Positions 5,867-15,621 of a stretch of 20,028 nt of DNA are shown here, in pieces. Location: the IMG/VR virus record IMGVR_UViG_3300022752_000495, positions 1 to 20,028 of that record; one strand, 5' to 3'. Both the position numbers and the translations under genes were made by a program. The stretch is from a virus. The notes under the pieces are model-generated. The model ran no database searches. It had not been told where the DNA came from and was given only the letters and a program-made list of their open reading frames with translations. The stretch's first letter is position 1. The number at the start of each line of letters is the position of its first letter.

Positions 5867-7380
5867 TGGCTGGATTCTTTCAAGCATTTGCAACTGGTGC
5901 TGCTACCACCATCACTGAGAATATTAAAAAAGAAGAAAAGAATGCTAGAGAACTAGCTGCTGCTCAAGCGTCTATGCTTATTGATAATCACAATAAAGTA
6001 AAAGATGCTAGAGATAAGCAAGCTAATAAGATGAAAGAGGATGTTCTCTTTCTTAAGTCTCAGTTTCCTACAGTGTCTAATGATGATTTAGTCACTGCTG
6101 CTACAAACCCTGCTGCTATTGCTGCTTTAAAAGCTAGAGCAGCACAGGCTGATTGGGATCCATCTGTAGTTAAGTTTACAGACTTTGCACAGCTTGCTTC
6201 TACCAATACTGGTAAATCAGTGGATGATCTTGTTAACAACATGTATGACATGTCTGCTGCTAAGGCTGCTCCTGTTGAAGCTAATAAGAGTATGAATCTT
6301 ATTCAAAAGATTACAGCAGGTACACAAGATCAAGAACTTAAACGAATTGTTGCTCCTTTAGGTCTTGATCCAGAGCAGTTAAAAGGAGCAATGAACTTCA
6401 AACCTAAGATGCCTGAAGGTGAAGTTAAGTTTAACTTAGGTGTTTTATCCACTCCTAGCTATGATGCACAACTTAAACAAGCAAAGCTTGCTGTAGTTAA
6501 AGCACAAGAGGCTGGTGATCCTGATGCTCTTGCAAAAGCTTCTGCTAAGGTGGCTGCTTTTGTTGTGGCTGAAACTCTTACCCGTACTGAGTCGTTAAGC
6601 AATGAGCAGATACAGTCTAATCTTGTTACAAAGATTCAAGCAGAAAAAGACCCAGAAGTTAAAGCTAAGCTTGAATTAGAATTGAAGAATAGACAGAAAC
6701 TTTTAGCCACTGATAAGAAAGTTACAGAAGCTGATATTAGAACAGACCTTGCTAATAAGATTATTGAAGCAAGAAAAGCTGGCGACACTAAACAAGTGGC
6801 TCTGTTAACTGGTGAATTGAAACAGCGTGAACAGCTTCTTGATAAACAGGAAACTAACGTAGAGAAAATATCAGCAGCCAATTACATTTCAGCAGCCACC
6901 AAAGGTGTTGCTTCTGCTATTCAAGACGCTATGCCTCCCGGCTCATTCATCACCATTACTAATCCTGATGGATCAACTTCTGTACAGCCTAAAGACTTGG
7001 CTTCTGAGAAACTTTATAGACAAGGCATAAATAACGGAAGAAACGCTGTTATTGCTCAGATGACAGGAGCAGATGGTAAGCCTAAGTCTGAGCTTCATAA
7101 GACAGCTTTGATTTCTATTGGTGTTGTGTTTGATCAGAATGGTGTAGCTAGACTTCCAACTGGTGGAGGAACACCGCCTCCTCCTGCACCTCCAGCAGCA
7201 CCAGTAGCAACACCAGCATCAGCAGCGTCAGCAGCGCCTACTCCTGCCCCTGCTAAGCCACCTGCTGCTCCATCAAAGCTTCCTACAGCAGCACAGTTTG
7301 ATGCTAAGTGGGCCACTATGAAACCGGGTGAAACAACAACCGGCCCTGATGGTAAGCCCTACACTAAAGGTAAGAAATAA
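5866..7380 (+). CDS. Putative internal virion / ejection protein (504 aa)
   Basis: A 504-aa, largely helical, charged protein. Residues 1-70 form an amphipathic then coiled N-terminus (FFQAFATGAATTITENIKKE). The middle (about 185-345) has long Lys/Glu-rich helices with an internal duplication, VTKIQAEKDPEVKAKLELELKNRQKLL versus LANKIIEARKAGDTKQVALLTGELKQREQLL. A Pro/Ala linker (about 425-470) leads to a small C-terminal element (FDAKWATMKPGETTTGPDGK, 480-499). Size and position just before the giant protein resemble T7 internal core protein gp15, but I see no sequence signature of it. It begins with TAATG on the previous stop and is followed two bases later by the next gene. Confidence 0.75.
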   Translation: MAGFFQAFATGAATTITENIKKEEKNARELAAAQASMLIDNHNKVKDARDKQANKMKEDVLFLKSQFPTVSNDDLVTAATNPAAIAALKARAAQADWDPSVVKFTDFAQLASTNTGKSVDDLVNNMYDMSAAKAAPVEANKSMNLIQKITAGTQDQELKRIVAPLGLDPEQLKGAMNFKPKMPEGEVKFNLGVLSTPSYDAQLKQAKLAVVKAQEAGDPDALAKASAKVAAFVVAETLTRTESLSNEQIQSNLVTKIQAEKDPEVKAKLELELKNRQKLLATDKKVTEADIRTDLANKIIEARKAGDTKQVALLTGELKQREQLLDKQETNVEKISAANYISAATKGVASAIQDAMPPGSFITITNPDGSTSVQPKDLASEKLYRQGINNGRNAVIAQMTGADGKPKSELHKTALISIGVVFDQNGVARLPTGGGTPPPPAPPAAPVATPASAASAAPTPAPAKPPAAPSKLPTAAQFDAKWATMKPGETTTGPDGKPYTKGKK

Positions 7381-7382
7381 AC

Positions 7383-10300
7383 ATGGCATGGACTCCTCCT
7401 TCTGATGCTGTAGAAGCCACTGCTGCTCCCTCCACTGGTGGATGGAAGCCTCCTGCTGATGCTGTAACAAGTAGCTGGACACCGCCTGCTGATGCTGTTG
7501 TAGCAGAGGCTGCTCCTGCTCCTAAACTTTCTCTTATAGAGACAGCTAAACAAAGTAGCATTCAAGCTGCTGCTAGCAATCTAGAAAGAGAAAAGAAGAT
7601 TAAGGAGAGTCAATTTTCTTTCAAAGACTTGTCTGAAAATCCAGACAACTTCAAAGCCATCAATGACTATGCTGTAGCTAGATTTGGTAAAGAAGGAGCT
7701 ATACTTCCTAATGAAACCAAAGATGACTATGTTAAGCGGTGGGCTAGCCACATGCGTATGCTTTCTTTTGGTAACCTTATTTCAGGTACACAAGAGATAC
7801 AATATTTAAATAATGCTAGTAGAGAAGATTTGTTAAAAGCTAAAAAAGCTTATGACATCTTTGATAACACAGCAAGCTATTTCAGTGAAAAAGGACAGAA
7901 GGGATTTACACCTGTTCTTGATGCTTTAGGAAGTGTTATTAGTGATCCAACCACAGCTATTTCTTTAGGTGCTGGTACTGTAGCTAAGAATGTCTTTGTT
8001 AAAGAAGCTGCCACAAAAGGAATTAGAGCAGCACTAGCTAGTAGGCTTGGTACTACTGCTGCACTCACTGTTCCCACTGTTGAAGGAACAGGCGCTGCTT
8101 TAGGTAACGTACAAGAACAGCGTAGAAAACTTGTAACACAAGACGCTGCTAACAAAAACACAAGAGCCAAGGTTGAACAAGCTAAGCAAGTGGTGGCACA
8201 GCTTCCACCAGAACAGCAGCAAGAAGTGGCTGATCAAATTAAGGAAATTGAAGCAAACTTAGTGGCAGAAGAAAAGAAAGTTGCTGAAGGAATCAACCTC
8301 ACTGAGGCAGGCACTGCTGGAGCTATCGGTGCTATTGGTGGAACACTAGAAACAAGTGGCTTGTTAACAGCCGCTAGGCTTGCTAGAGGTAAGACAAAGG
8401 TGGGAGAGTTAGATGCCATATTAGCAGAGCGTCAACAGGCTGCTAGAGGCCGTATAGAGCCTAAGATGGATGTATCTACACCACCGCCTGAAGTAAAGGT
8501 GGCTCCTAAAGCAGCAACAGAGACACAGCTTGAAGATGCTTATGACATCTTTGAAGGTAGGAAGCTTCTTAATAAAGAAGGAGATCCTACATCTATTGCT
8601 GAGATGCAAATAAGAAATGATGTGAACAAGAAGGCTGCACAGATTGCAAGCAATGTTTGGTCACAAGTTCCTGAGCTTGCTCCTAAAGCTGATCAGAAGA
8701 TTAGTGATGCTGTTAAGAATGTTTTCATGAACATTGAGAACATTGATGATGTTATTCTTCGTGATGCTCTAGCTAATGCTGGAGTTACACCAGAAGAGTT
8801 TGCTCGTATGAATAGAACAACAGCAGGGGACGCTGGTCGTACATTGCAAGCCTATTCTGTTCTTGCTCGTTTACAAAACAAACTTAAGAACATTGATCCT
8901 GCTGCTGCTAAAGAAGTGGATTTGATGTATGGTAAACGTAACACACTGACATCTGCATTCACTGGTCTGTATGATCTATCAATGAGACTAGATAGAGAGC
9001 TTAAGGCCTTGATGGTGTCGCAAGTTGCTACCACTGTACGCAATGCTTTTTCAGGTGGTATGGTTGTAACTTTTGGTGCAGCATCAGAAGCCATTGAGTC
9101 TTCTCTATATCGTATGGGTAAAACAGCCTATGAACTTGGCAGCGGTAAACCATTGACAGGTAGTTTTACTGGTGGTCTTAAAGGTGTCTATGATGATGCC
9201 GTTAGAACAGCTTTCTATTTAGGACAAAGCAACCTATCTTCTGATGTAGCTGAAAGACTTCTTGCTGGTTCTCCTACTCTGCGTGGTCGTATCTTACGCA
9301 CAGTGGGTGAGAACGAAGCCACTGAACTTTCTAAAGTGGCACAGATGGCTAACACATTGAACGTAGCTCAAGATGCTTTCTTTAGAAAAGCCATCTTCAC
9401 TGCTTCTGTTGAGAAACAACTTAGCCGTGTTGGTATTGATATGTATGACATCATGTCACAAGGAAAGAATATTCCTTTTGATGTGCTAAAGAATGCTACA
9501 GATGAAGCATTGGCTGCTACATTTAGCAAGATGCCAACACAAGGTGTAATGTTCCATGCAGTTAAGTTTGTGGAATCATTAGGCCCTGTTGGTTCTACCC
9601 TCGTTCCTTTCCCTCGCTTTATGGCTAATGCCATGTCGTGGACATACAAGCATAGCCCTATGGGTGTCTTTTCTGGTGCTGCTGACATAGCTAAAGGCTC
9701 TTCTATGTTAAGAGCAGGCAATGAAGAAGGTCAGAGATATTTAATGAAGGGCTTAGAGAACACATCTAAGGGTGCTGTAGGTACTGCTGCCATCTATGCA
9801 GCTTATAAATACAGACAAGAAAACCAAGACACTAATTGGTACGATATAAAGAATCCTGATGGAAGTTTAGTAGACACTAGAGCGTTGTTTCCTATGGCTC
9901 CTTTCTTAGCTATGGGTGACTACTTGGTTAAGCTTGAGAAAGCTAGAACAGATGAATTCAGCACTAAAGAATTCTTAGAAGCAATGACAGGTTTCAAAGC
10001 CCCTGCCGGTACTTCTGCGTGGTTGGGAGATAAGTTTGCTGAGTCAGTGTCTAATATGCAAACAGGTGAGGGAAGTGCTGATCAGAAGGTGGCTACATTC
10101 TTTGGTGAGTGGGCAGGTCAATACTTTGGTAGAGCATTAATTCCTGTTCAACAGATCAGTGACTTGATTGGTGCTATTGATAGAGATGAAAATCTACCAA
10201 GAGATGCTTATCAGATTCCTGCTGGTGAAGAAGGCTTTCTTTCTTCTATGAAGAATCAGCTTATTAAGAAGACACCTGTTCTTAAACAAGAGCTTCCTGT

Positions 10301-12935
10301 ATATCAACCAGCTACAAGAAAAGAAGCTGCGTTTAATGATGCAGGGCCTTTGAAGATATTCACTGGTATCACTATCAAGGGAGCACCACAGCCTTTAGAA
10401 GAAGAGATACTTAAACTTAAAATACCAAACAATAAAATCTTTACCTCCACTGGAGATAAGATTGTAGATGCTAGTGCTCGTAAGGTGATGGCTCCTCTGT
10501 TGCTTGATACATTTGATGTGTTAAAAGAAACAGACTTCTACAAGCAAGCTGGCCCTGACGTTAGAAAAATTGCTATGCAAAATCTTCTTACTTGGGCGCA
10601 AACAAATGCTAAAGATATTGCTAGTAAACAAGCAGAGGCTGATGCCTTTAATCGTGGTGAACAAGCACGTTTGTTTGAAATTAAATATAGCAAACTTGCT
10701 CCTGAAGTTAAGAGAGCTACGGCAGAGTTTTATAAACAGAACATGAAGAAAGACTTAGCAGAAACTAAGGACTATGTGTCTGCTCTTTCTATTGCTGCTG
10801 CTCTAAAGAAACAACCAGCATTTGGTGTTGGTGGTGTGGCTACACAGATGGCTGAAACTCTTATTGGTAAGAGTGCAACTAAGGTGGCTAAAAAGTCTAT
10901 CACTGAGTCTGCTGATGACTTGCTTAAGAAGGTGACAGACATGGCTACCAAAGCAGGGGTGGAAGTTGCTCCTGCTGTGAAGCAAACAGAAGACTTGTTG
11001 AAGCAACAAGGAACTCCTGTATCTGTGCCTCCTTCTGTTACAAAGACTGCCCCAAAGAAAGAAGTCATTGTTCCTGCTACACCAATGGAGCCTGCTCCTG
11101 TTGTCAGTAAGACTGAAGAAACAGTGCAGCCAAGCTTTGTGGATGAGATTAATAAATATTCCACAGAGCAACTTAACCAAGCTGAGTCTTTGTTAAAGAC
11201 TAGCATGGGATCGCAGTACCAGCTAGATAAATTTAAAACTGATTTCCCTGATGATTATCAAAAGAGTTTCTTAAATAAGCTGAAAGAGATTGCACCTGAA
11301 GGTACAGCTACACCGCCAACACTAAAAGACTTAACCCTTGTTAGTCCTGATATTGTGTTCACACCAATTAATGATTTAGAAAAAAGAGCTTTATCTAGAG
11401 CACCAGATTTTAACAAGCTTCCTTTGGTAAGCGGTGATACATTCAGAAGAAAAGAAGTATTACAAAATATCAGAGAAATTAGACAGAACACTTTCCCTGT
11501 TTTAGTTGACAAGCTTGATGAGCTTTCCTTTACTAAGGGAGCTAAACCTTTGGATGAAGATGTTATAGCTGTTGCACAAGGTGAATACAGAGCAGCTAAA
11601 GGAAAAGAAGTAGAGGCAGATGATGCTGCTTCTTTAGAAGACTTTGCTTCTTTTGCTTCTAAATACCAAGACAAGCTTGATGCTTTGCGTGTTAAATATA
11701 AAGATACACCTCCTGTTATTCTTTATCATGGTAATAGATCAGAGCGCACTCCTGAAAAACTTGCTAGAGGTTTCTACAATCCTCAGACAAACAAGATGTC
11801 TCACTTTGAATTGAATGCTGGAGCCATCTCCTTTACCAAAGATCCCAACTTAAACTATTACATTGAAAAGTTTGGTGGCAAAAATCCTAAGAATATTTCT
11901 CAAGTGGAAATACCATATGCTGAATATGAATTCAGAAGAGTGAACATGCCTCTTGATGCATATGATAAACAGGATTTAAACTATCTAGCAAGAACAATCA
12001 CTGGTAGTCCTAATGTGGCTAGACCATTGAGCTTGCCCCGCTCACAGCTATTTAAAGAAACAGAAGATGTTTTTGTTGAAGCAGATAAGCTTAAGGTGAC
12101 ACAAGACATAGCTGGTGTTAGTGAGAAGTATGGGAAGATAAGTGCTAGAGAAACAAAAATAAATGATGCGTTAGCTAGGCTTAATGACTTTAATTACAGC
12201 TCTACTAAAGGACTGGCTAGCAAAACTGCACCTAATGCCTATCAAGCATACAAAGATATTCGCACTGTGTTTAATGAAATTGCTAAGTCTTCAGAGGTGA
12301 CATCAACTAAAACAGGCTATGGTCAAAACTATTATTCTGCTTTAGAGAAGTACCAAAGCGAACTTAATTCAAGTATTAACAAGCTGCTAAATATTTATAG
12401 GGATGAGATGAGCCAAGAAGCTTTTAACACTAGTCCTAAACCTGCTATGTTGTTGGAGCTTAAGAAAGCTTTACAGAAAACAGATCCGATTTTGTACTCA
12501 GCAGGAGAACAAAAGAAAGCCATTGAGACTATCAGAGATATTACACCCAAGCTTAATAAAGGTGGTGGCTTAGGTTTGAAAAAAGATAGTACAGAAGAAG
12601 GACTAGCCCCATACGGTTTACGCAATAGTGGTGAAGGTGCTAAAGGTAAGGGATATCTTGGTGCGCTTCCAAATAAAGAAGGCGGTGTGTCTACAGAAAT
12701 ATCTTCTGAGTTTACATACAAAGGAAAGAATGTAGAGCATCCACTCATTGTGCCTACATTAAATAAAGCTGAGCTTAATCATTTATTGGCGGGTAAGGAA
12801 GCAACTGATGCCATCTATTCAAAGGCACAAGCCTTTGCAAAGAAAAGAATAGATGAGGGTAAGAGTGTGTTTGCTGAGCCTACAGAGATGCGCTATCCAA
12901 CACCTGATCAAAAGGGACTAGCTTCTAGGAAGTAA
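7383..12935 (+). CDS. Giant multidomain virion / ejection protein (1850 aa)
   Basis: An 1850-aa polyprotein-like virion protein, by size and place comparable to T7 gp16-type ejection proteins, though no transglycosylase motif is evident. Residues 1-40 carry three WxPPxDAV repeats (W3, W21, W32). About 80-350 is helical with hydrophobic Gly/Ala stretches (ISLGAGTVAKN, AGAIGAIGGTL) that could enter membranes. A central domain (about 470-1010) includes STLVPFPRFMANAMSW. Residues 1050-1350 are helical and Pro/Ala-linked. About 1445-1570 resembles an ADP-ribosyltransferase fold (L-Y-H1449-G, ISFTKD, Y1492/Y1493, FVE1566). The end (about 1744-1840, YGLRNSGEGAKGKGYLG ... VPTLNKAEL) is a module I recall from many phage proteins. 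It is probably injected with DNA. It is the last right-pointing gene. Confidence 0.85.
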   Translation: MAWTPPSDAVEATAAPSTGGWKPPADAVTSSWTPPADAVVAEAAPAPKLSLIETAKQSSIQAAASNLEREKKIKESQFSFKDLSENPDNFKAINDYAVARFGKEGAILPNETKDDYVKRWASHMRMLSFGNLISGTQEIQYLNNASREDLLKAKKAYDIFDNTASYFSEKGQKGFTPVLDALGSVISDPTTAISLGAGTVAKNVFVKEAATKGIRAALASRLGTTAALTVPTVEGTGAALGNVQEQRRKLVTQDAANKNTRAKVEQAKQVVAQLPPEQQQEVADQIKEIEANLVAEEKKVAEGINLTEAGTAGAIGAIGGTLETSGLLTAARLARGKTKVGELDAILAERQQAARGRIEPKMDVSTPPPEVKVAPKAATETQLEDAYDIFEGRKLLNKEGDPTSIAEMQIRNDVNKKAAQIASNVWSQVPELAPKADQKISDAVKNVFMNIENIDDVILRDALANAGVTPEEFARMNRTTAGDAGRTLQAYSVLARLQNKLKNIDPAAAKEVDLMYGKRNTLTSAFTGLYDLSMRLDRELKALMVSQVATTVRNAFSGGMVVTFGAASEAIESSLYRMGKTAYELGSGKPLTGSFTGGLKGVYDDAVRTAFYLGQSNLSSDVAERLLAGSPTLRGRILRTVGENEATELSKVAQMANTLNVAQDAFFRKAIFTASVEKQLSRVGIDMYDIMSQGKNIPFDVLKNATDEALAATFSKMPTQGVMFHAVKFVESLGPVGSTLVPFPRFMANAMSWTYKHSPMGVFSGAADIAKGSSMLRAGNEEGQRYLMKGLENTSKGAVGTAAIYAAYKYRQENQDTNWYDIKNPDGSLVDTRALFPMAPFLAMGDYLVKLEKARTDEFSTKEFLEAMTGFKAPAGTSAWLGDKFAESVSNMQTGEGSADQKVATFFGEWAGQYFGRALIPVQQISDLIGAIDRDENLPRDAYQIPAGEEGFLSSMKNQLIKKTPVLKQELPVYQPATRKEAAFNDAGPLKIFTGITIKGAPQPLEEEILKLKIPNNKIFTSTGDKIVDASARKVMAPLLLDTFDVLKETDFYKQAGPDVRKIAMQNLLTWAQTNAKDIASKQAEADAFNRGEQARLFEIKYSKLAPEVKRATAEFYKQNMKKDLAETKDYVSALSIAAALKKQPAFGVGGVATQMAETLIGKSATKVAKKSITESADDLLKKVTDMATKAGVEVAPAVKQTEDLLKQQGTPVSVPPSVTKTAPKKEVIVPATPMEPAPVVSKTEETVQPSFVDEINKYSTEQLNQAESLLKTSMGSQYQLDKFKTDFPDDYQKSFLNKLKEIAPEGTATPPTLKDLTLVSPDIVFTPINDLEKRALSRAPDFNKLPLVSGDTFRRKEVLQNIREIRQNTFPVLVDKLDELSFTKGAKPLDEDVIAVAQGEYRAAKGKEVEADDAASLEDFASFASKYQDKLDALRVKYKDTPPVILYHGNRSERTPEKLARGFYNPQTNKMSHFELNAGAISFTKDPNLNYYIEKFGGKNPKNISQVEIPYAEYEFRRVNMPLDAYDKQDLNYLARTITGSPNVARPLSLPRSQLFKETEDVFVEADKLKVTQDIAGVSEKYGKISARETKINDALARLNDFNYSSTKGLASKTAPNAYQAYKDIRTVFNEIAKSSEVTSTKTGYGQNYYSALEKYQSELNSSINKLLNIYRDEMSQEAFNTSPKPAMLLELKKALQKTDPILYSAGEQKKAIETIRDITPKLNKGGGLGLKKDSTEEGLAPYGLRNSGEGAKGKGYLGALPNKEGGVSTEISSEFTYKGKNVEHPLIVPTLNKAELNHLLAGKEATDAIYSKAQAFAKKRIDEGKSVFAEPTEMRYPTPDQKGLASRK

Positions 12936-12967: not shown

Positions 12968-13042
12968 TGGTAGGGCATACAGGAATTGAACCCATATTCA
13001 TGGTGTAGAAGACCATTGTATTATCCATTATACTAATGCCCT
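12968..13042 (-). tRNA. tRNA-Arg (anticodon UCU)
   Basis: A 75-nt tRNA including CCA. On the minus strand the acceptor stem AGGGCAT pairs with ATGCCCT (7 bp), followed by discriminator A and an encoded CCA. The D stem is GTAT/ATAC. The anticodon stem is ATGGT/ACCAT with loop CTTCTAC, giving anticodon TCT (13007-13009) preceded by U33 and followed by A37. The T stem ATGGG/CCTGT contains two wobble pairs, and the T loop is the canonical TTCAATT. UCU reads AGA/AGG; AGA is visibly the commonest arginine codon in the phage genes here. The gene lies 7 bases after the last left-pointing CDS, so it is probably processed from that transcript. Confidence 0.93.
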
Positions 13043-13049
13043 GTCTCTC

Positions 13050-13235
13050 TTAAGCAGCTTCTTTAAGCTTCCTTAAGTTATCAAAATAACCCCTATCAAA
13101 TCCTCTCTGCCATTCCTTTCCTTGAACGGTGTAAGGATTGTATTGGTTATTCAACCATCCCTTTGTAAAGGCAAAGTAGCCTTGCTCAAACTGAATACGC
13201 AAGGGTGCTGTGCGTTCTGCTTTAATTACAATCAT
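13050..13235 (-). CDS. RMF-like small protein
   Basis: A 61-aa basic protein with G19-x-x-A22-x-x-x-G26, N33-P-Y35 and W42-x-x-G45 (GYFAFTKGW, NPYTV, EWQRGF). This spacing matches the ribosome modulation factor / CrpP small-protein pattern (Gx2Ax3G...NPY...Wx2G), a family often carried by phages and plasmids. Bacterial RMF binds the 30S subunit; the role of phage versions is not established. I chose ATG 13235, which overlaps the previous stop as ATGA and has GGAG 6-7 bases upstream, over an ATG at 13271 that would overlap the neighbour by 40 bases. It lies directly before the tRNA gene. The family call is from pattern only. Confidence 0.7.
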   Translation of the reverse strand: MIVIKAERTAPLRIQFEQGYFAFTKGWLNNQYNPYTVQGKEWQRGFDRGYFDNLRKLKEAA

Positions 13236-13708
13236 ATCTTCTCCATTAGCTGAGATATTTTTAAGTTCCAACAGTCTGACTTTACCACATATCCATTCGT
13301 AGGGTCAACATCCCCCTTCTTCATGAACACAGCATCTTTAAAATATTGATGTTTTTCATACACACCAAGATACCATCCAATAGAGAAGTCATTCTTCACC
13401 CTACAGAAAGCATAGTAGTCACAGTCTTGTTTAATATTTAAATTAGCAATGCTGCAATCATATGTTTCTAATGGGACATAGCCTGTCTGCTTTGTCTTGA
13501 CATCAATCTTAGTGCCATCATCTAGAACCAAGTCATAGTCGTAAGTGTTATCCAACTTACCACCTAATACCTGTTGAGCAATAGCTTCACCAATGAAGCC
13601 AGCCATATTGCCAGCCCCTCTGATGATGCTATTGTAAAGCTGCCCCATCTCAGCAGCTTTATCTCTCGCTTCCACTAACATAGTAGGAGTGATGACTACT
13701 TCAATCAT
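13232..13708 (-). CDS. PD-(D/E)XK nuclease-fold protein
   Basis: A 158-aa protein with the layout of a PD-(D/E)XK nuclease: an N-terminal helix with G-E41 (GFIGEAIAQQVLGG), Y-D57-Y-D59-LVL before a hairpin, then I-D69-V-K71-T-K. The acid, the D-x-K pair and the upstream glutamate are the expected Mg2+ and catalytic residues. The rest is beta-rich (DYYAFCRVKNDFSIGWYLGVY), as in proteins of this fold seen in aquatic phages. The start is taken at ATG 13708, overlapping the RNR stop by ATGA; an in-frame TTG lies at 13720. No strong ribosome site is visible, so translation is probably coupled to RNR. It may act in recombination, end processing or host DNA degradation; the substrate is not known. 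Confidence 0.7.
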   Translation of the reverse strand: MIEVVITPTMLVEARDKAAEMGQLYNSIIRGAGNMAGFIGEAIAQQVLGGKLDNTYDYDLVLDDGTKIDVKTKQTGYVPLETYDCSIANLNIKQDCDYYAFCRVKNDFSIGWYLGVYEKHQYFKDAVFMKKGDVDPTNGYVVKSDCWNLKISQLMEKI

Positions 13709-15621
13709 CGGACAGGACAAGCACCAGAGGCACAGTCGTCATCAAGTCCAATGTTAGCTTCATCAATAGTGGTGATGAGCTTAGTGCTTGCAACCAATGC
13801 ATTGTATTGGTCTTCACTAATCTCTTCCAGCGGTGCTTGATGGAAGCCATGCTCTGAGTGCAGCAGGAAAGACAAGCTCTTATGGCTGTGCTTGTAGTGC
13901 TTCTTCAGATACTTACGAATCTCTGGAAGCTCTTCCTTGCGGTAGTAGACAGTGCAAGACACACTGTTATCACTCCACACTTCTTGTAGCCACTTAACTG
14001 TTTCCAATTGCTGGATGGCAGTCATGTCTTTAGCCAACACTGCATGATCAGGATGACGGAATGGGAATGATACAACCATAGTTGAATGGTCTTCACTACC
14101 ATCGAAGTTACGCTGATACTCTACAGGGTAGCCATGATCACGGCACACCTGCACCAATGAATGATTAGAAGCAATACGAATACGTCTAATCATAAATCTA
14201 GCATAGGCTGGATGACAGCCACTGGTAACACCGGGCAACAAAGACAATGTGCCTGATGGCTTAACAGTGGTGAGCTTCACAGACTTATTAAAGCCATGCT
14301 TTTGGCTGTAGAAAGCATCGTAGTTACGCAGCTTCTTATAAGCCAAAGCTAACCAGCTTTTTTGTTCTTCGTTGGATTGAAGCAAACCAGTGATGCCAAT
14401 ACCCATACGCATGTTCTCATGAACAATGGCCTCTGTTTGCGGTAGATGGCAAGGCAGAGCAAGGCTGTGTTTATTAATCCGATAAAGCAGTGTAGCCACA
14501 TCATTAAACTCTTCTTCACTTTCAATGTTGGGCAGATAGATTTCTGCTAAGCAACATGTTTCTTTATCAGCTAAGCTTTGCTCAGCACATGGGTTATAGC
14601 CCTGCACTTTTGGATCAGGATATTCTGTCTCACCTAAGCGTCCAACTTTGCGGGACAGCTTTAGGTTGATGAGTCCATAAGGTTCTCCCTTACCCTCATA
14701 GCCATCCCAAAAGAATTCATGCAAGTCACTGATGTCATCACAGACAACAGAGTTGTTTGACATTGCTCTCCATGACGGGATGTTTCCCATGTCCCATCGT
14801 TTAGCTAACAGATATTCAACATCGTCTGCGTCACCAATAGCAATCTGTGCTGACCTACGTACATTACCAGCAACAACAATGGAGCCGATGATGTTCATAA
14901 TGTCTAAGCAATCAATGGGGCGTAGCTGCTTTCCTTTGCGCTTCTCCAGCACATCAGAGATGTTATTGATACCATTACACAGATCTTCAGGGCCACTAGC
15001 TGTACCACCAAAGCCTTTGATGGGTGCTCCCTTACCACGAATAAGCTGTGTGCTGTAGGTAAAGGTGCAGCCATTCTCTGAGTCGCTTAAGAACGCTGCC
15101 TTAAGTGTTTTGCCCAAAAGTTTAACCCACCCTTCACGGCTATCTGGCACAATAAAAGAAGCGTCAGCGGTATCAAGGCGAGTAGGACGAACAAATCTAG
15201 AATTAACGAGCGGAAGTTTATCAACATTATTCCTTTGAATGTTATAGCCAACACCACTGCCTAACATCAACAAATCCATAGCCCATGTGAAAGGCTCAAC
15301 AGGTTTATCAATGACAGTGAATGCACAGTTTTGTAGGCTAGCTAAGCCAAGCTTAGAGACAGTGGGAGTACCCAATTGCCATAGGAAGCGTCCTGCAACA
15401 ATGCCTTTTAAACCCAACAGATAGCCCCTTAAACGCTCTTGTTCTGCTTCGGTGAAGCCACACCCTAGCTGATCGTTAGTGGCTCTTACAACCCTGTCTA
15501 CTACGTCTGTAAACTCCTCCGTCTTACTGTTTAAATCTGTCTCATTAAGTCTTCGTGCATATGTTCTTTTCATTGTTAAATAGCCAACAGTTGACCAAGG
15601 CGTTACTACATTAGTATTCAT
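13705..15621 (-). CDS. nrdJ: Ribonucleotide reductase, class II (B12-dependent)
   Basis: A 638-aa adenosylcobalamin-dependent, monomeric-type reductase that makes deoxyribonucleotides in the cytoplasm. Key residues are in place: C99 (LQNCAFTVID), N343-P-C345-A-E347, with C356 eleven residues after C345, matching the N/C/E/C pattern of the Lactobacillus leichmannii enzyme. The C-terminal C630-ASGA-C635 pair is the swinging thiol relay. PSGTLSLLPG (455-464) is the conserved phosphate-binding loop. It is about 100 residues shorter than the L. leichmannii enzyme (about 739 aa), as I recall for other phage forms. ATG 15621 has GGAG about 6 bases upstream. It follows a terminator and a short gap, and starts the RNR - nuclease - RMF-like - tRNA group. 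The class needs no oxygen or NrdB subunit but depends on host cobalamin. Confidence 0.93.
   Translation of the reverse strand: MNTNVVTPWSTVGYLTMKRTYARRLNETDLNSKTEEFTDVVDRVVRATNDQLGCGFTEAEQERLRGYLLGLKGIVAGRFLWQLGTPTVSKLGLASLQNCAFTVIDKPVEPFTWAMDLLMLGSGVGYNIQRNNVDKLPLVNSRFVRPTRLDTADASFIVPDSREGWVKLLGKTLKAAFLSDSENGCTFTYSTQLIRGKGAPIKGFGGTASGPEDLCNGINNISDVLEKRKGKQLRPIDCLDIMNIIGSIVVAGNVRRSAQIAIGDADDVEYLLAKRWDMGNIPSWRAMSNNSVVCDDISDLHEFFWDGYEGKGEPYGLINLKLSRKVGRLGETEYPDPKVQGYNPCAEQSLADKETCCLAEIYLPNIESEEEFNDVATLLYRINKHSLALPCHLPQTEAIVHENMRMGIGITGLLQSNEEQKSWLALAYKKLRNYDAFYSQKHGFNKSVKLTTVKPSGTLSLLPGVTSGCHPAYARFMIRRIRIASNHSLVQVCRDHGYPVEYQRNFDGSEDHSTMVVSFPFRHPDHAVLAKDMTAIQQLETVKWLQEVWSDNSVSCTVYYRKEELPEIRKYLKKHYKHSHKSLSFLLHSEHGFHQAPLEEISEDQYNALVASTKLITTIDEANIGLDDDCASGACPVR

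What the first reader, a model, noticed from the sequence alone, without database searches (positions are those of the whole stretch)
11717..12092. ADP-ribosyltransferase-like segment inside the giant ejection protein
Residues about 1445-1570 read like an ART-PolyVal-type fold: a first strand ending L-Y-H1449-G, an A-I-S-F-T-K-D strand, then N-Y-Y (1491-1493) and a late acidic strand (EDVFVE1566). H-Y-E is the triad of one ART class. The domain follows Pro/Ala-linked helices and precedes another module, as in polyvalent phage proteins. If real and active, the enzyme would enter the host with the DNA, as T4 Alt does, and modify host proteins at once.
Basis: inference. Interest (0 to 1): 0.6.

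Follow-up and report, generated by a model that had tools for sequence, protein, structure and literature searches.

The report
Phage-injected ADP-ribosyltransferase with eraser partner
A freshwater phage probably injects, along with its DNA, a large protein carrying an ADP-ribosyltransferase domain of a previously unrecognised family, and the near-complete genomes of its relatives also encode an enzyme of the kind that removes ADP-ribose, which suggests an early, reversible chemical modification of the host.

Summary
The 1850-aa ORF (7383-12935) really contains an ADP-ribosyltransferase (ART)-fold domain, at aa ~1409-1573. Pfam, PHROGs and PDB sequence searches with the window's own sequence find nothing. 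An alignment of 46 relatives from viral contigs gave a confident AlphaFold2 model (pLDDT 88, pTM 0.80). All 50 listed PDB fold matches are ARTs or RES domains of the ART superfamily (best E 1.3e-3, probability 1.00). Invariant residues include H1449-G, S1483 (in SFTxD, at the usual Tyr position) and E1559-x-E1561. E1566 is invariant but lies after the last strand, so E1561 is the better catalytic Glu. The set is H-S-E with an ExE motif, not H-Y-E, and the domain fails the ART-PolyVal profile.

The carrier matches the last large structural-module protein of HMO-2011-type podoviruses, which lack this C-terminal extension. New observation: all 15 ART-carrying contigs of 54-62 kb tested also encode a DraG-like ADP-ribosylglycohydrolase, as does the window's 98%-identical twin; three HMO-2011-type genomes without the ART have none. 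I read it as a virion-delivered ADP-ribose writer whose phage also makes an eraser. Fold is well supported; catalysis, delivery and target are inferred.

The parts
7383..12935 (+). 1850-aa protein; homologue of the last large structural-module protein of HMO-2011-type podoviruses, with a C-terminal extension of about 700 aa
8523..10817 (+). aa 381-1145, conserved ejection-protein-like core shared with HMO-2011, CRP-345 and ctYwJ313 (20-26% identity)
11607..12101 (+). aa ~1409-1573, ADP-ribosyltransferase-fold domain (N-terminal helix plus split beta-sheet)
   Evidence: alignment A7; AF2 pLDDT 87.8, pTM 0.80; Foldseek
11727..11732 (+). H1449-G1450, strand 1, invariant in 46/46
11829..11843 (+). 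S1483-F-T-K-D1487, strand 2; S1483 and D1487 invariant; S1483 at the position of the usual H-Y-E tyrosine (motif match by eye)
12057..12065 (+). E1559-T-E1561 (ExE); E1561 opens the last core strand and is the best catalytic Glu candidate
12078..12080 (+).
12603..12932 (+). aa 1741-1850, separate C-terminal module also found in endolysin-like phage proteins, ending KGLASRK
   Evidence: (hits H8-H12)

Best explanation
The domain is a divergent, probably active NAD+-dependent ADP-ribosyltransferase fused to the C-terminus of a podovirus ejection (internal virion) protein. It most likely enters the cell with the DNA and transfers ADP-ribose from NAD+ to a host macromolecule in the first minutes, using H1449 and S1483 to hold NAD+ and E1561 (with E1559, an ExE arrangement) for catalysis. 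A DraG-type ADP-ribosylglycohydrolase encoded in the oppositely transcribed replication/metabolism cluster, and made only after phage genes are expressed, would then remove the modification or protect the phage's own components. Shown here by computation: domain, predicted fold, conservation, co-carriage with the hydrolase. Inferred: catalysis, virion packaging, injection, substrate and timing. An arginine target is a guess from the ExE motif plus the DraG-type partner.
For: Model with pLDDT 87.8 / pTM 0.80; all 50 listed PDB fold hits are ART-superfamily (diphtheria toxin, exotoxin A, cholix, Jlx, tankyrase, PARP13, RES), best E 1.3e-3, probability 1.00, TMq up to 0.48; viral library next hits include a phage NAD(+) ADP-ribosyltransferase and an iridovirus PARP-like protein. 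Independent sequence hints: the top three PDB hits of the A7 profile are RNA 2'-phosphotransferases of the ART superfamily (E 0.5-0.8); 4/46 members hit the PHROG RNA 2'-phosphotransferase family (best E 1.2e-3); hhalign to E. coli KptA 47% over 29 columns. Invariant H1449, S1483, E1559, E1561 in 46 sequences; dN/dS 0.09-0.17. Hydrolase in 15/15 ART-carrying contigs of 54-62 kb, in 13/17 of 32-52 kb, including the window's twin (G016; 98.2% over 16.4 kb), with GEWTDD and DADT(V) motifs intact. ART absent from the whole genomes of HMO-2011, CRP-345 and ctYwJ313. The module is a separate gene just downstream in several lineages, showing it is a self-contained unit.
Against: No virion proteomics. 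ART and hydrolase are both features of one clade, so co-carriage may partly be shared ancestry.
Confidence: 0.62

Rival explanations
1. The domain is an NAD+-consuming ART-fold enzyme that does not modify macromolecules (RES-like NAD+ phosphorylase/NADase), lowering NAD+ to weaken host defence or metabolism.
For: RES domains rank among the PDB fold hits with the highest TM-score normalised by target (0.47-0.49); the strand-2 residue is atypical.
Against: The phages carry an ADP-ribosylglycohydrolase, whose characterised members act on ADP-ribosylated proteins (PMC9503650), and no Macro domain was found.
Confidence: 0.13
2. The domain is a catalytically dead ART fold kept as a structural or binding module of the ejection protein.
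For: The usual tyrosine is replaced by Ser, and the second aromatic is only partly kept.
Against: H1449, S1483, E1559, E1561 and D1487 are invariant across sequences down to about 42% identity; the module also exists as a separate gene.
Confidence: 0.15
3. The domain is a KptA/Tpt1-like RNA 2'-phosphotransferase or RNA-directed ART working in RNA repair.
For: The strand-1 region PPxxLYHG...GF is closest by profile to KptA/Tpt1.
Against: The match is confined to 29-38 columns around the H motif; the ExE end differs from the H-H-h clade, which is recalled and not tested here.
Confidence: 0.05
4. The hydrolase is unrelated to this ART and counters a host ADP-ribosylation defence; the co-carriage is shared ancestry. 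(This rival concerns the pairing, not the ART itself.)
For: All carriers form one clade; the two genes are thousands of bases apart on opposite strands. ARH without a described ART is reported in five HMO-2011-type genomes (PMC9038755).
Against: All carriers over 50 kb tested have both, across deep divergence.
Confidence: 0.3

Closest known systems
ART-PolyVal / Tox-ART-HYD2 domains of polyvalent phage proteins (Roseovarius Plymouth podovirus 1 vRNAP; PMC5512222)
   Same: ART domain inside a giant podovirus protein thought to be injected; same strand-1 YHG motif; the terminal E-x-V-I/F strand can be lined up by eye
   Different: No PF18760 match; only 9 columns align by hhalign; described active site H-Y-D against H-S-E with ExE here; different carrier protein
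T4 Alt (Alt/VIP2 clade, R-S-E)
   Same: Proposed head-packaged ART that acts at once after injection
   Different: Strand-1 His, not Arg; not among the listed fold hits; carrier is an ejection-protein homologue
PARP and diphtheria-type ARTs (H-Y-E clade)
   Same: Best fold matches; His in strand 1; Glu at the start of the last strand
   Different: Strand-2 Tyr replaced by an invariant Ser; sequence identity 9-18%
ART-ARG pairs: DraT-DraG and the Aeromonas phage pair (PMC9503650)
   Same: Writer and glycohydrolase eraser in one genome
   Different: Here the writer is part of a probable virion protein and the eraser is in the replication/metabolism cluster, not an adjacent gene
HMO-2011 phage1322_22 protein and its equivalents in CRP-345 and ctYwJ313
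   Same: Syntenic last large structural-module protein, 20-26% identity in the core
   Different: 1128-1218 aa, without the C-terminal ART extension; no ART elsewhere in the genome

Membership tests
ART superfamily | Split beta-sheet ART fold | tested here: met
   Predicted model pLDDT 87.8; all 50 listed PDB fold hits are ART-superfamily, best E 1.3e-3, probability 1.00
ART superfamily | Conserved NAD+-binding/catalytic residues in strands 1, 2 and last | tested here: met
   H1449 and S1483 in their strands and E1561 at the start of the last strand, all invariant 46/46; pocket geometry not measured
ART superfamily | NAD+-dependent activity | not testable with these tools
   needs assay
H-Y-[EDQ] clade | Tyr in strand 2 | tested here: not met
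   Ser in 46/46 at the inferred position; the later aromatic is Y/F in 36/46
H-Y-[EDQ] clade | His in strand 1 | tested here: met
   H1449 46/46
R-S-E clade (T4 Alt/VIP2) | Arg in strand 1 | tested here: not met
   His 46/46
R-S-E clade (T4 Alt/VIP2) | ExE motif and strand-2 Ser | tested here: met
   E1559-x-E1561 and S1483 invariant; assignment of the Ser rests on a by-eye match of ISFTKD to IYFTTD-type motifs
ART-PolyVal (PF18760) | Profile match over cut-off | tested here: not met
   none at E<=10 for the window domain or at E<=10 for 46 members
Polyvalent/virion-delivered effector | Present in virion and injected | not testable with these tools
   position and homology only
KptA/Tpt1 RNA 2'-phosphotransferase | Match to the family profile over its length | tested here: not met
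   only the H-motif region aligns
DraG/ARH (partner, not in window) | PF03747 match with metal-site motifs | tested here: met
   E down to 6e-42, GEWTDD and DADT(V) motifs conserved

The most novel reading that the evidence does not exclude
A core writer/eraser pair split by time of delivery: an ART of a new H-S-ExE type that arrives in the virion, and a glycohydrolase made from early phage genes that erases its mark, so that the phage imposes a transient ADP-ribosylation pulse (perhaps on arginine) at the start of infection.
Probability: 0.3. Interest if true: 0.8.

Novelty: new variant of a known kind. Interest (0 to 1): 0.6.

Why it matters
Virion-delivered ARTs are proposed to be a first-line phage strategy, but by published survey ARTs are found in only about 3% of podoviruses and ADP-ribosylglycohydrolases are rare in phages (PMC9503650). 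Here both occur together in every large contig tested of a podovirus clade related to the abundant HMO-2011 group, in a family that current ART profiles miss. It gives a defined domain, point mutants and a candidate eraser to test whether phages time the removal of a host modification.

Tried and rejected
Single-sequence Pfam, PHROGs, NCBIfam and PDB searches gave only chance hits. A first AF2 model from 25 close sequences was poor (pLDDT 66) and its fold search was not significant; it was replaced after deepening the alignment. Direct profile comparison with ART-PolyVal domains gave 6-7% probability over 9 columns, above 60 column-shuffled controls (maximum 0.7%) but too little for membership. 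Two genome-contig scans found no cellular relatives. Macro domains as alternative erasers: none in 18 records. Searching RNR relatives for ART-less genomes gave mostly short marine fragments, so the ART-negative set beyond the three complete genomes is weak. ARH-first scan: most ARH contigs were too short to reach the ART locus; of the five of 28 kb or more in that test, four carry the ART and one (33 kb) does not.

Full report
1. The observation. The ORF 7383-12935 (+) encodes 1850 aa; aa 1445-1570 map to 11715-12092 and the quoted motifs are there. The window's own sequence has no meaningful match in Pfam, PHROGs or the PDB, so a single-sequence profile search alone would have refuted the idea.

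2. Relatives. Iterated searches of viral contigs brought in relatives down to about 42% identity; clustering gave 39 groups below 82% identity. In the 46-row alignment A7, 21 of 176 positions are invariant, including H1449, G1450, E1476, S1483, D1487, E1559, E1561, E1566 and K1569. The domain is under purifying selection (dN/dS 0.09-0.17). No relative was found in two scans of bacterial and archaeal genome contigs, and none convincing in 50,697 phage records.

3. Fold. With A7, AlphaFold2 gives pLDDT 87.8 and pTM 0.80, all five models alike in confidence. Against the PDB every one of the 50 listed matches is of the ART superfamily; best E 1.3e-3, Foldseek probability 1.00, TMq up to 0.48. These are fold matches at 9-18% identity, not evidence of toxin function. 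In the viral library the one close match is a 47%-identical phage protein named only for a large-polyvalent-protein-associated domain; after it come a phage ART and an iridovirus PARP-like protein among other hits. Weak but independent sequence signals point the same way: KptA/Tpt1 enzymes are the top three profile hits in the PDB and RNA 2'-phosphotransferase is the most frequently hit PHROG.

4. Active site. H1449 lies in strand 1, S1483 in strand 2, and E1561 is the first residue of the last core strand (residues 156-159 of the model); E1566 (model residue 161) lies in the following loop. Y1492 is Y or F in 36/46 and Y1493 is not conserved. In ART-PolyVal domains of N4-like vRNAPs the end strand reads like TEAMVIV..DQI, which matches TEDVFVEADKL by eye and also favours E1561; this is an inference, since hhalign aligns only the H motif. 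The signature is therefore H-S-E with ExE, mixing features of the H-Y-E and R-S-E clades. Placing S1483 at the Tyr position is my reading of the motif, not a structure-based alignment.

5. Carrier protein. Core aa 381-1145 is homologous to the last large structural-module protein of HMO-2011, CRP-345 and ctYwJ313, with the same gene order and an oppositely transcribed class II RNR cluster beyond. Those proteins are 1128-1218 aa and their whole genomes lack the ART. The ejection role is inferred from position and from comparison with T7-like internal virion proteins; I found no proteomics. In several lineages the ART module is a separate ORF of about 540-690 aa directly downstream, with its own ATG or TTG start and, in one group, a GGGG-containing leader; on a core-domain tree the fused/split state needs at least two to three changes.

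6. The partner. A DraG-like ADP-ribosylglycohydrolase (PF03747) is present in 15 of 15 ART-carrying contigs of 54-62 kb and in 13 of 17 of 32-52 kb, where absences may be truncation. It is absent from the three ART-less genomes HMO-2011, CRP-345 and ctYwJ313 and from ten ART-less fragments. The window is a 20-kb fragment without it, but contig G016, 98.2% identical over 16.4 kb, has it about 6-7 kb beyond the window's right end on the strand of the RNR cluster. Metal-site motifs are intact, and the nearest solved proteins are DraG-type hydrolases. Published work reports such a gene in five HMO-2011-type genomes, with unclear function (PMC9038755). Caveat: all ART carriers are one clade, so the contingency table is not a test of independent association.

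7. Mechanism. Best reading: virion-delivered ADP-ribosylation at entry, later removed or restrained by the phage's own hydrolase. Shown: domain, predicted fold, conservation, co-carriage. Inferred: activity, packaging, injection, substrate, timing. Rivals are an NAD+ phosphorylase/NADase, a dead fold, an RNA-directed enzyme, or a hydrolase aimed at host ARTs.

8. Novelty. Virion-delivered ARTs in giant phage proteins are known (PMC5512222, PMC9503650) and an ART-ARG pair is known in Aeromonas phages. New here are the family, its H-S-ExE signature, its attachment to an HMO-2011-like ejection protein, and the pairing with a glycohydrolase. Hence a new variant of a known kind.

Noticed in passing
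G016 6316-7053 (locus L308); 15 contigs: DraG-like ADP-ribosylglycohydrolase in every ART-carrying contig of 54-62 kb tested; absent from HMO-2011, CRP-345 and ctYwJ313.
   Followed up: partly
window 12968-13042 (-): tRNA-Arg(TCT) immediately downstream of the giant ORF, at the same place in many relatives (tRNA-Trp in L015, tRNA-Arg plus tRNA-Thr in L026); none detected in the matching stretches of the three HMO-2011-type genomes.
   Followed up: partly
window 12603-12932: C-terminal module aa 1741-1850 resembles parts of endolysin-like phage proteins (39-46% identity) and is missing in some relatives.
   Followed up: no
C-termini of the giant proteins and their split forms: Most end in a (K)GGLASR(R/K)-like tail; possible processing, packaging or targeting signal.
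   Followed up: no
L026, L030, L042, L057, L096, L119, L182: The ART module is a separate downstream gene instead of a fusion; the state changed at least two to three times.
   Followed up: yes
window 13232-13720 (-): 162-aa ORF beside the RNR with a sub-threshold match to DUF6998 (E 1.6e-4).
   Followed up: no
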